The notes under the pieces: model-generated
What the model was told of the DNA's origin: nothing
What the model saw: the letters and a program-made list of their open reading frames with translations, nothing else
Databases searched by the model: none
Made by a program: the position numbers and the translations under genes
In this document: positions 5,365-52,294 of the stretch, piece after piece
Layout: each line of letters starts with the position of its first letter
How positions within the stretch are numbered: position 1 is the stretch's first letter
DNA from: Deltaproteobacteria bacterium
Lineage (GTDB): Bacteria; Desulfobacterota; Desulfuromonadia; Geobacterales; Pseudopelobacteraceae
Direction: 5' to 3'
Assembly (NCBI GenBank): GCA_021779135.1
Contig: JAJYBH010000001.1
Span: 25,993-89,992 of the forward strand
DNA: 64,000 nucleotides

Positions 5365-7998
5365 ATGACAGGCAGAGAGATTCGCGCACGATTTCTGAAA
5401 TATTTTGAGGATCGGGGACATGTGGTGGTCCCCAGCTCGGGGATCCTCCCCAAGAACGACCCGACTCTGATGTTTACCAATGCCGGCATGAACCAGTTCA
5501 AGGACTGTTTCCTGGGTCTGGAGGATCGCGGCTATTACCGGGCAGCCAGTTCGCAGAAGTGCGTGCGGGCCGGCGGCAAGCACAATGACCTGGAGAATGT
5601 GGGGCGCACCGCCCGCCATCATACCTTCTTCGAGATGCTGGGCAACTTTTCCTTCGGCGACTACTTCAAGAAAGAGGCCATCGCCTTTGCCTGGGAATTT
5701 CTCACCGTCGACCTGGGGCTGGACAAGAGCCGCCTGTATGTGACGGTCTACACCGATGACGACGAGGCCGCCGACCTCTGGCACCTGCAGGAAGGTGTGC
5801 CGCGTGAGCGGATCTACCGCTTCGGCGAGAAGGACAACTTCTGGTCAATGGGGGATACCGGCCCCTGCGGCCCCTGTACAGAAATCTTCTGGGACAACGG
5901 TCCCGAGGTGGGCTGCGGCTCTCCAGACTGTGCCGTGGGATGCGACTGCGACCGCTACATGGAGATCTGGAACAATGTCTTCATGCAGTTCAACCGCTCA
6001 GCCGACGGTGTCCTGACGCCGCTGCCCAAGCCCTCCGTCGATACCGGCATGGGGTTGGAGCGCATCACGACCGTCATGCAGGGGGTGCACTCCAACTACG
6101 ATACCGATCTGCTGCAGGGGATCATCCGACACATCGAGCGTCACAGCGGTAAAACGTATGGCGACAATGAGAAAGACAATGTCTCCATGCGGGTCATAGC
6201 CGATCACTGCCGTGCCGTGACTTTCCTGATCTGTGACGGGGCCCTGCCCAGCAACGAGGGGCGCGGCTATGTGCTGCGACGCATCATGCGCCGCGCCGCC
6301 CGTCATGCCAAGATGCTGGGGGTGGGCGAACCGTTGCTCTACAGGATGGTGGAGGCGGTACGCGAAATGATGGGGGATGCCTATCCGGAACTGGCCGAGC
6401 GCGAGGCCTATATCAAGAAGGTGGTTCTGGCGGAAGAGGAACGCTTCACCGAGACCCTTGATCGCGGCCTCGGGATTCTCAACGATGAAGTGGCAGCGTT
6501 GCGTATCAGCGGAAAAACGGTAATTCCGGGCGACGTGCTCTTCAAGCTGTACGATACCTTCGGTTTCCCGGTCGATCTGACGGCTGATATCGTGGAATCG
6601 GAAGGTTTTACGGTTGATGAAGCCGGTTTCGGGGCCTGCATGGAAAAACAGCGCGAGCTGGGCCGCGAACACTGGAAAGGTTCCGGGGCTGAGGGAATTG
6701 CCGACATCTACAAGGCAATACACAATCGTGGTGTTCATTCCCAGTTTGTCGGCTATGACGCCCTGCTGGCCTATTCTCCGATACTGGCGCTGGTGCGTGG
6801 TGGCGTTGAAGCCAACACTGCAACGGCCGGCGACCAGGTGGATGTGATCGTGGAATCGACGCCTTTCTACGGTGAATCAGGTGGACAGGCAGGTGATGGC
6901 GGCCTGATCTCCTCCGGAAGCGCTCATCTGGAGGTTGTGGATACCAGTCGGCCATTTGTTGACCTGATAGTCCATCATTGCCTCGTCAAGGAAGGGTCAC
7001 TGCGGGTTGGTGATGCGGTCAATCTGACCGTCAACGGCGCTACCCGCGCTGCCACGGCGCGCAATCACACCGCCACGCACCTGCTCCAGACCGCCCTGCG
7101 CCAGGTGCTGGGGGAGCATGTCAAGCAGGCCGGTTCACTGGTGTCTCCAGACCGTCTGCGTTTCGACTTTACCCATTTCTCCGCCATGACCACCGACGAG
7201 CTCAGGCAGGTGGAGGGTCTGGTCAATGGCTATGTCATGGAGAATGCCCCGGTGGCTACCAACCAGATGCCGATCAGTGAAGCCATCGAAGCCGGGGCAA
7301 CGGCCCTGTTCGATGAAAAATACGGTGATTCGGTGCGCGTGGTCCGTGTGGGCGATGTCAGCATGGAGTTGTGCGGCGGCACCCACGTTCGGGCGGCTGG
7401 CGACATTGGTCTGTTCAAGATCGTCTCGGAAGCCGGGATTGCCGCGGGGGTACGCCGCATCGAAGCTCTGACCGGGACCGGCGCGCTCGGTTTCGTCCGG
7501 CAGATGGAGGATGAACAGCGGGCGATGGCGGCACTGCTCAAGGCCGAGGGAGGCAACCCGCTGGACCGGCTGGAAAAGCTGCTGCTCCGCCAGAGGGAGT
7601 TACAGCGCGAGATCGAGTCGCTCCAGGGGCGCCTCAACGCCGCGGCGTCCGGGGATCTGCTGTCGCAGGTTGTTGAGGTCAACGGCATAAGACTGCTGGC
7701 GGTACAGGTACAGGTCGAGGATATCAAGGGGTTGCGTGACCTGTCCGATACCCTCAAGGAGCGTATGGGTGAAGGGGTTGTCATCCTGGGCGCCGAGATC
7801 GGCGGCAAGGCCAATTTGCTGGTTGCCGTCAGCAAAGAATTGAGTGCAACAATAAAAGCCGGTGATATAATCAAACAACTGGCACCGATTGTGGGAGGAA
7901 GTGGCGGCGGCAAGCCCGAATTGGCCCAGGCCGGCGGAAACCTTCCCGGCAAGATTGGTGAAGCCCTGGCTGCGACAGCACGGATACTCGGACGCTAG
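5365..7998 (+). CDS. alaS: Alanine--tRNA ligase
   Basis: [59 protein letters not shown] and CGGTHV motifs. Confidence 0.99.
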
Positions 7999-48136: not shown

Positions 48137-49027
48137 ATGTCTCAACTCGTCATGCAAACTGATTTTCCCGGACTTAACCTGATCACCCGCGGCAAGGTCC
48201 GGGACATTTATGACCTGGGCGACACGCTGCTGCTGGTCACCTCCGACCGCATATCCGCCTTTGACGTCATCATGAACGAGCCGATTCCGGACAAAGGTTT
48301 CGTTCTGACTCAGATCTCGACCTTCTGGTTTCGCCAGATGGCCGATATTGTGCCCAATCACATTATCTCAACCGATGTGGCCGATTACCCTGCTGTCTGC
48401 CAGCCCTATGCAGACGTGCTGAGGGGCCGCTCGATGTGGGTAAAAAAAGCCAAACCACTGGCTGCGGAGTGTATCGTGCGTGGATACGTCTCCGGCTCGG
48501 GCTGGAAGGATTACAAGGCCACCGGCTCCATCTGCGGCATCAAGTTGCCGGCGGGGCTGAAAGAGTCCGAACGCCTTCCCGAACCGATCTTCACCCCCTC
48601 TACCAAGGCCGATTTGGGCACTCACGATGAGAATATTTCCTTCGATGAGATGGCCGAAGTCTGTGGTCGCGAGTTGGCCGAACAGGCCCGCGAATATACA
48701 CTCAGGATTTACAGCCGCGCCCGTGACCTGGCCGCCGAAAAAGGGATCATCATTGCTGATACCAAGTTCGAGTTCGGCGTGTTTGAAGGGAAGCTGATCA
48801 TCATCGATGAGTGCATGACCCCGGATTCCAGCCGTTTCTGGCCCCAGGACCAGTATCAGCCCGGCGGACCGCAGCCCAGCTTCGACAAACAGTTTCTGCG
48901 CGATTATCTGGAGACCCTTGATTGGGGCAAGAGCGCGCCGGCTCCGCCGCTGCCGTCAGAAATTGTCGAGAAGACCGCCGCAAAGTATCGCGAGGCACTG
49001 CTGCGCATTACCGGAATCAGCGTGTAG
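48137..49027 (+). CDS. purC: Phosphoribosylaminoimidazole-succinocarboxamide synthase
   Basis: [68 protein letters not shown]. Confidence 0.98.
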
Positions 49028-49178: not shown

Positions 49179-49358
49179 ATGAAGCTGGATGAAATCAGAG
49201 AAATTGCAAAACAACATAACATCAAGGCGGGAAAGATGAAGAAGGCGGATCTGATACGTGCCATCCAGCAGGCGGAAGGCAATGAGGTCTGTTTTGACAC
49301 CGGCAAGGCTGCAACCTGTGGTCAGCACACCTGTCTGTGGAGTGATGACTGTCAGTAA
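49179..49358 (+). CDS. 59-aa SAP-like/Cys-rich small protein (not in supplied ORF track)
   Basis: Translated by hand: MKLDEIREIAKQHNIKAGKMKKADLIRAIQQAEGNEVCFDTGKAATCGQHTCLWSDDCQ; upstream GGAGAG; own hairpin downstream. Confidence 0.75.
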   Translation: MKLDEIREIAKQHNIKAGKMKKADLIRAIQQAEGNEVCFDTGKAATCGQHTCLWSDDCQ

Positions 49359-49423: not shown

Positions 49424-49823
49424 TCATGCATGCACGGCAGTGCTCCTCAGAAATTTACCCTGCTTCACATCCACCGTGGATATGTGGTGTATCAACCATT
49501 GCAACAAACAAGGTTGGTTTCGACGACATGATGAAGCGCGACCCCTTCCCCGTTGATCTCCCCCTTTAGATCGGTCAGATGGGCGACAAACGAATTGTGC
49601 CCTGGTTAATGGGCCGAATGGTCGCGCTGCCCGGGCTACGTCTGTATACGTTCCTCATCTCTGAAATGCTTGATCACATACTCGTCCAGAAAACCGAACA
49701 GAGGTTTCAACTCATTATCCCCTTGCCGGACTCTCAGGCCTTCAGCAGCGGGTCACAGTGTGGCCGCAGCGTTTTGTACTGATTGTCGATCTCCGTTACA
49801 CTGACAGAAAGCGAATCTCTCCA
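49424..49823 (-). pseudogene. Degraded bacteriohemerythrin gene
   Basis: Minus-strand pieces in different frames: WRDSLSVSVTEIDNQYKTL; QGDNELKPLFGFLDEYVIKHFRDEERIQT*; PGHNSFVAHLTDLKGEINGEGVALHHVVETN; QWLIHHISTVDVKQGKFLRSTAVHA*. Confidence 0.85.
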
Positions 49824-49825
49824 TC

Positions 49826-52290
49826 CTATTCCCAGGTGTCTGGCCTCTCCGGGCTGTTTTTTAAAACGCTGCCGGCTGCTTTTCGTGGTTTCTTTGTGCG
49901 CCTGCCTTCCTGTTCCTTCATCCGCTCCGCCATTTCAGTCAGGCGCTTGTCCACCAAATGAAAAATAGTCTTTTGGGGGAATGTCCCCTGTTTGTTCCGC
50001 TTGCCGGCTTTCATGCCGGTCAGGATCTCTATGCCCTGTTCAATGGTTTCCACGCTCCAGATATGGAAGCGGCCGTTTGCAACAGCCTCGATAACCTCGT
50101 CGTTCAGCATCAGGTGGCGTTCATTGGTCTTGGGGATCAAGACCCCCTGTTGACCCGTCAGCCCCTGTGATTTGCAGATCGCAAAAAAACCTTCGATCTT
50201 GAAGTTGACGCCGCCGATCGGTTGGATCATGCCACGCTGGTTGACGCTGCCGGTGACGGCGATGCCCTGTTTGATCGGAATACCGGCGAGGGCCGACAGC
50301 AGGGCATACAGCTCGGTGGATGAGGCACTGTCACCCTCGATGCCGTCGTAGGATTGTTCAAAACAGATGGAAGCCGAGAGTGACAAGGGGCGCTGCACGG
50401 CGAATGTACCGCCCAGATAGCCGGTCAGGATCATGACCCCCTTGTCGTGAATCGGGCCGGAGAGCTTGACCTCGCGCTCGATGTTGACCATGCCGGCCTG
50501 ACCGGTGTAGACCCGTGCCGTGATGCGGGAGGGACGGCCAAAGGTGTGGTCTCCCAGGCCGATCACCGACAGGCCATTGATCTGGCCAACCACCACATCG
50601 TCGGTATCCACCAAGAGCGAGCCGTCTTCGTAGAGCTCGTGCATGCGTTCTTCGATGCGATTGACCCGGTACACCTTTTCTTCGGCAGCCCGCAGTACAT
50701 CGGCTCCGGTGACGACGGTGTGTCCGTCCTTGCGGGCCCAGAAGCTGATTTCACGGATAAAGTCGGAAATCTCCATGAACTGGGAGGAGATCTTGTGCTG
50801 GTCCTCTACCATGCGGGAGGTGTATTCCAGCAGGCGGGCCACACCCGTACGGTCAAAGTGCAGCAGTTTTTCACAGCGGCAGTGCGTGGCCACGAACAGG
50901 GCATAATCCTGCATGATCTCGGGTGTGCGGGTCAGGCGGCTGTCGAAATCGGCCTTGACCTTGAAAAACTTGCGGTAGTCCGGGTCCATGTAAAACAGCA
51001 GATAGTAGATCCAGGGGGTACCGATCATGATGATCTTTGTCTGCATGGCAATCGCCTCGGGTTTGAGGGTGACCATGGTCATGAAGCGGTACTGTTCCAG
51101 CACGTCCTCGATACGGATGTCGCCGGTGCGGATGCAGCGCTTGAGCGCATCCCACACAAAGGGATTGATCAGCACCTCGCGGGCGTCAATGACCAGATAA
51201 CCGCCGTTGGCGCGGTGCAGGGCACCGGAGCGGATCATGGTGAAGTCGGTCACCGCGACGCCGCCGTACTGCATGACATGTTCGATGCGGCCGAAGAGAT
51301 TATTGTAGGTCGGATTTGACTCGAACACCACCGGAGCGCCCACGGTGTCCTTGTTGTCTACCAGTACATTGACCTCGTAGCGCTCAAAGGTCGGTTCCTG
51401 CCGCGTCATCTTGATCCCTGGGATCTGGGGCTGGTTGGACTGGGGTTTGAAGTCCTCAAGATTGTTGATGATATCTTCCTGCACCGCATCGAGATAGGCC
51501 TGCACCTTTTCAAGGCCGGCATATTTTTCCTTGAGCGGCCCCAGTCGATGGCCCAGGCAGGACATTCCCAGATCACGGTCGGCCTGCGCCAGGGCATCTT
51601 TGGTCAACTTTTCGTTGTCCCTGACCCGCCGCAGTACCTCGTTAAGTTTTTCGGTCAGCTTTTTCCCGGTATCATCGAGCTTCTGGCGTTTCTTATCGGT
51701 CAGCGCTTCGTACTCTTCCTGGGTGTAGTTGCGCCCCTGTTTCTGTGGCACGATCACCAAACCGGAAACCGTCCGCTGCAGGGCAAAGCCGTGTTTGGCC
51801 GCTTCCTTTTCCAATGTCTGGAACAGGTCGTTGTTGTTTTTCTGGTATTCTTCAAGAATTTCCGCCCGTCTGGCCTCATATTCCGGGCTTTCCAACGCCT
51901 TGGGGATGTCAGTTTTGAAGGCATCCACAAGCACCTTCATATCTGCCGCCAGCTCACTTCCTTTTCCCGCCGGCAGTGCCAGGGAAACAGCGGAGTCGCT
52001 GTCCTTGAAATTATTGACGTAGACCCAGTCGCTGGGCTGCGGTTCTTCCTTGGCCCTTTTTTTGAGGATATTGCGGATGGTAGAGGTGCGGCTGGTGCCG
52101 GTCTCGCCCGAGATAAACAGGTTGAAACCGGTTTCTTCCATACCCAGGCCGAATTCGATCGAGCGCAGCGCCCGCTGCTGGCCGATGGCATAATCCAGAT
52201 CGGGCAGCTCTTCGGTCGTCTCGAATTTGAACAGTGCGGGATCGCAGGTCCAGCGGAGTTTGTCCGGTGTGAGCAGGTGATTGCGGGATG

Positions 52291-52294
<4 letters not shown>
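49826..52294 (-). CDS. Lon-related ATP-dependent protease (AAA + S16 peptidase)
   Basis: LFISGETGTSRTSTIRNIL; HRANGGYLVIDAREVL; protease region EGDSASSTELYALLSALAGIPIKQGIAVTGSVNQRGMIQPIGGVNFKIEGFF. Confidence 0.92.

What the first reader, a model, noticed from the sequence alone, without database searches (positions are those of the whole stretch)
49424..49823. Bacteriohemerythrin pseudogene hidden downstream of the Lon-related protease
The minus strand carries every diagnostic part of a bacteriohemerythrin split by frameshifts and stops: N-terminal WRDSLSVSVTEIDNQYKTL (cf. W-x-LSVGV-x-EID-x-QHK), FGFLDEYVIKHFRDEERIQT* (HxxxE-type ligand helix), PGHNSFVAHLTDLK, and QWLIHHISTVDVKQGKFL (W-L-x-x-HI-x-x-x-D). 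Its N-terminal end directly abuts the protease stop codon (49826-49828) with no start codon, so the 5' end has probably been lost. The annotation track shows only spurious plus-strand ORFs here.
Basis: partly seen in the sequence, partly recalled or inferred. Interest (0 to 1): 0.6.

Follow-up and report, generated by a model that had tools for sequence, protein, structure and literature searches.

The report
Decayed bacteriohemerythrin gene beside Lon protease
A small gene for an oxygen-binding iron protein, intact next to the same protease gene in most related bacteria, has rotted into a full-length but unreadable relic here; this is ordinary gene decay caught midway.

Summary
The finding is real. 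On the minus strand, 49835..49424, immediately downstream of a Lon-like protease (52294..49826), lies a full-length relic of a bacteriohemerythrin. A frameshift-tolerant alignment to 43 intact orthologues scores 286, against a maximum of 33 in 200 dinucleotide shuffles. Intact copies of about 135 codons sit directly downstream of the same protease in most of the bacterial family, including one species of the same genus.

The relic has three in-frame premature stops, two net one-base losses, CTG at the ancestral ATG start, and a diiron-ligand His changed to Tyr. Its branch has lost codon-position bias (21:19:18), whereas the sister branch keeps it (6:9:26; p = 0.002), although the contrast is weaker with some outgroups.

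In the intact sister the gene overlaps the protease by 10 nt, and the same junction is present here with only the start codon altered. Sequencing error is unlikely given at least five lesions plus neutral-type substitutions.

In the genus, one species is intact, one decaying (this one), and two lack the gene at this place. An ordinary pseudogene; interest is low.

The parts
49424..49835 (-). Full-length bacteriohemerythrin pseudogene (about 137 codons including the terminal TGA 49426-49424)
   Evidence: frameshift-tolerant profile alignment, score 286 vs shuffle maximum 33; TIGR02481 65.4 bits; intact syntenic orthologues
49833..49835 (-). CTG at the place of the ancestral ATG start codon; it lies inside the end of the protease gene
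49776..49778 (-). TAC (Tyr) in place of the first diiron-ligand His (profile column 20, at least 97% His in 43 orthologues)
49734..49736 (-). Premature stop TGA (column 34)
49714..49715 (-). Net one-base loss (frameshift), next to a GGGG run; position uncertain by a few bases
49636..49638 (-). Premature stop TAG (column 67)
49606..49608 (-). Premature stop TAA (column 77), within the HxxxH ligand pair
49511..49512 (-). Second net one-base loss (frameshift); position uncertain by a few bases
49826..52294 (-). Intact upstream Lon-like protease (AAA_32, LonB AAA-LID, LonC_helical, Lon_C domains), 822 aa
   Evidence: 87% identical to G001 with mostly third-position changes (82:44:334)
49179..49358 (+). 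Convergent small Rho_N/SAP-domain protein with a Cys-rich tail, a syntenic neighbour that marks the locus in relatives
48137..49027 (+). SAICAR synthetase (purC), the next syntenic marker

Best explanation
The locus is a decaying, in-place pseudogene of a single-domain bacteriohemerythrin that in most of this Geobacter-related family is carried immediately downstream of a Lon-like protease. In an ancestor it presumably made a soluble four-helix diiron protein that binds O2 (function inferred from the family), expressed together with the protease (close or overlapping genes: shown; co-transcription: inferred). In this lineage selection on it was relaxed. It then collected a start-codon change, three stops, two frameshifts and loss of an iron ligand, and it no longer encodes a working protein. 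The protease upstream remains under purifying selection.
For: Profile alignment far above shuffles, with at least five disabling lesions. Codon-position pattern on the window branch is flat (21:19:18), on the sister branch 6:9:26, Fisher p = 0.002 with outgroup L025, and p = 0.014 with three agreeing outgroups. Protein identity to the G001 orthologue is 58% for the relic (hand-joined reading) versus 87% for the protease. Two other species of the genus have lost the gene at this place.
Against: 32 of 38 near-invariant positions are still kept, so decay is not far advanced. CTG is a rare permitted start in table 11, so the start change alone would not prove inactivation. The codon-position contrast is weaker with other outgroups (p = 0.23 with L041, 0.11 with L017). 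The genome is a draft of 221 contigs and reads could not be inspected.
Confidence: 0.96

Rival explanations
1. Assembly or sequencing error: the real gene is intact and the draft sequence is wrong here.
For: Draft assembly of 221 contigs; one of the two frameshifts lies by a GGGG run; reads were not available.
Against: Three substitution-type stops, a start-codon change, a ligand His to Tyr change and a flat codon-position pattern over about 58 branch-specific substitutions cannot come from a few base-call errors; the adjacent 2.5-kb protease gene is open throughout.
Confidence: 0.02
2. Still functional in a recoded form: translation from CTG with readthrough or frameshifting, or a shorter peptide keeping part of the helix bundle.
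For: CTG can serve as a rare start; several ligand motifs (HxxxE, HxxxH, HxxxxD) survive.
Against: Three stops, two frameshifts, one ligand lost and no codon-position constraint.
Confidence: 0.01
3. Remnant of a horizontally acquired or duplicated hemerythrin inserted here, not the native gene of the locus.
For: Hemerythrins are multicopy in relatives.
Against: Intact orthologues lie at the same place, in the same orientation and, in G001, with the same 10-nt overlap; the closest matches to the relic are those syntenic copies.
Confidence: 0.01

Closest known systems
Bacteriohemerythrin (NF033749 / TIGR02481; solved relatives 4xpx, 4xpw and DcrH-Hr 2avk)
   Same: Same length, same WRxSL...EIDNQ(H)K, HFxxEE, HxxxH and WLxxHIxxxD motifs; the intact orthologue matches NF033749 at 115 bits (cut-off 84) and 4xpx at E = 7e-13
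   Different: The window copy is broken: start altered, three stops, two frameshifts, first ligand His is Tyr
Syntenic intact orthologue in G001 (locus L008, same genus)
   Same: Same place, orientation and 10-nt overlap with the protease gene
   Different: Complete 135-codon frame with all ligands; 58% identical to the relic's hand-joined reading
Broken copy in L065 (Geobacter sp. isolate GL140_6)
   Same: Same locus, also with a premature stop and a frameshift
   Different: Different lesions and a distant lineage, so either independent decay or MAG error; not tested further

Membership tests
Bacteriohemerythrin (TIGR02481 / NF033749) | Profile match over the full domain | tested here: met
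   Hand-joined reading: TIGR02481 65.4 bits over the cut-off of 51.75; NF033749 65.6 bits, below its cut-off of 84; raw-DNA frameshift alignment spans columns 1-132 of the profile
Bacteriohemerythrin (TIGR02481 / NF033749) | Seven diiron ligands (H, HxxxE, HxxxH, HxxxxD) | tested here: not met
   Six of seven present; first His replaced by Tyr (column 20); the HxxxH pair encloses a stop
Bacteriohemerythrin (TIGR02481 / NF033749) | Open reading frame able to make the protein | tested here: not met
   Three stops and two frameshifts
Pseudogene of the lon-linked bacteriohemerythrin | Intact orthologue at the same place in relatives | tested here: met
   L008 and most of the family
Pseudogene of the lon-linked bacteriohemerythrin | Several independent disabling lesions | tested here: met
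Pseudogene of the lon-linked bacteriohemerythrin | Relaxed selection on the branch | tested here: met
   Codon positions 21:19:18 vs 6:9:26, p = 0.002; weaker with some outgroups
Pseudogene of the lon-linked bacteriohemerythrin | Lesions confirmed by reads or other strains | not testable with these tools
   No reads and no second genome of the species were available

The most novel reading that the evidence does not exclude
The Lon-like protease and the hemerythrin next to it form a functional pair in this family (for example the diiron protein senses O2 or iron and tunes the protease), and lineages that lose the hemerythrin, like this one, have uncoupled the protease from that signal.
Probability: 0.07. 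Interest if true: 0.5.

Novelty: already known. Interest (0 to 1): 0.17.

Why it matters
It is a clean, well-controlled case of gene decay caught midway: intact, decaying and absent states of the same small gene among four species of one genus, with the neighbouring protease unaffected. It is a useful annotation correction, since gene callers would miss it, and it draws attention to a conserved Lon-like protease/bacteriohemerythrin gene pair. I found no paper on that pair in the library searched, but the pair's function remains speculative.

Tried and rejected
Loss of the 5' end: rejected, because the intact sister gene overlaps the protease gene in the same way. Replacement by a close paralogue elsewhere in the genome: not found. 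The other PF01814 matches are two iron-sulphur repair RIC/ScdA-like proteins (L003 was tested, L004 judged by its similarity to L003), a distant HHE protein (L001), a hemerythrin domain at the end of a chemotaxis-receptor-like protein (L002, about 30-35% identical to the orthologues) and a diverged hemerythrin-domain protein (L005, open frame 178 aa, 23% to the relic). Remnant of the gene in the G002 intergenic region: none detectable. One family search failed on wrong coordinates and was repeated with typed-out sequences. Literature on a hemerythrin/Lon link: nothing found; Geobacter genomes are known to carry several hemerythrins (PMC2996986). No structure prediction was run, since the family assignment is clear from sequence.

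Full report
What is there. The minus strand from 49835 to 49424 carries a full-length relic of a bacteriohemerythrin gene directly downstream of a Lon-like protease gene (52294..49826; Pfam AAA_32, LonB AAA-LID, LonC_helical and Lon_C). A joined reading matches TIGR02481 above its curated cut-off. Because that reading was assembled by eye, I also aligned the raw DNA to a profile of 43 intact orthologues with a frameshift-tolerant dynamic programme: score 286 over profile columns 1-132, versus a maximum of 33 in 200 dinucleotide-preserving shuffles; an intact orthologue scores 433.

Lesions. Relative to the orthologues there are three premature stops (TGA 49736-49734, TAG 49638-49636, TAA 49608-49606), two net one-base losses (near 49715 and near 49512) and a CTG at the position of the start codon (49835-49833). 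The first diiron-ligand His is Tyr (column 20); the other six ligand positions are kept, as are 32 of 38 near-invariant columns overall. The reading ends at TGA 49426-49424, giving almost exactly the length of the intact genes.

The 5' end is not lost. In the sister species G001 (L008) the intact gene begins 10 nt inside the protease gene: the protease TAG lies within ATGGCAATAGAATGG. The window reads CTGGGAATAGGATGG with its protease TAG in the same place. CTG is a rare permitted start, so this lesion alone would be weak evidence.

Context in relatives. An intact hemerythrin of 132-138 codons directly follows the same protease in most genomes of the family, usually separated by 1-50 nt or overlapping by 4-20 nt (151 nt apart in one). 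In the other families of the order that were fetched, the protease lacks this neighbour and the nearest hemerythrin lies elsewhere. A protease tree places the window genome with G003 (98/95), then G001 (85/49, not firm), then G002. G001 is intact, the window is broken, G002 lacks the gene while the small Rho_N/SAP protein and purC stay next door, and G003 has different genes downstream. The hemerythrins that remain elsewhere in G002 and G003 are at most 43% and 40% identical to the G001 copy, so they are not simply moved copies. At least two losses in the genus are therefore likely if the tree order holds, and whether the window's decay began before its split from G003 cannot be told.

Selection. 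Using G005 (L025) as outgroup, substitutions specific to the window branch fall evenly on codon positions (21:19:18; test for evenness p = 0.89), while those on the G001 branch favour third positions (6:9:26; p = 0.0002); the two differ at p = 0.002. With three agreeing outgroups p = 0.014; with single outgroups L041, L017 and L011, p = 0.23, 0.11 and 0.02. The adjacent protease, compared between the same two species, shows 82:44:334, strong constraint. Relaxed selection is thus well supported, though not equally by every outgroup. Several independent lesions plus this pattern make sequencing error very unlikely.

What it did and what is left. Family knowledge (bacteriohemerythrins are O2-binding diiron four-helix proteins; solved relatives 4xpx and DcrH) suggests that the ancestral gene made a soluble O2 binder, probably co-expressed with the protease (inferred). 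The other PF01814 proteins of this genome are RIC/ScdA-type repair proteins, a chemotaxis-receptor-like protein with a hemerythrin domain, a distant HHE protein and a diverged hemerythrin-domain protein; none is a close replacement. The draft is 98% complete, so a missed copy is possible but not likely.

Verdict. It is a routine pseudogene, interesting mainly as a decay intermediate and as a pointer to a conserved Lon-like protease/hemerythrin gene pair whose meaning is untested.

Noticed in passing
window 49179-49358 (+); also seen in L008, L012, L065: Small conserved protein (59 aa) with a Rho_N/SAP domain and a Cys-rich tail (CFDTG...CGQ..CLW..DC), kept between the protease/hemerythrin unit and purC even where the hemerythrin is lost; function not followed up.
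   Followed up: partly
Family-wide, e.g. L008, L010, L013, L025: Conserved adjacency of a Lon-like protease and a bacteriohemerythrin within one family, not seen in neighbouring families of the order; possibly functional, possibly only conserved gene order.
   Followed up: partly
L065 about 6466-6870: Second broken copy of the lon-linked hemerythrin in another lineage (premature TAA and a frameshift); decay or MAG error.
   Followed up: no
L057, L058, L064, L068: Further lineages with the protease but no hemerythrin directly downstream.
   Followed up: partly
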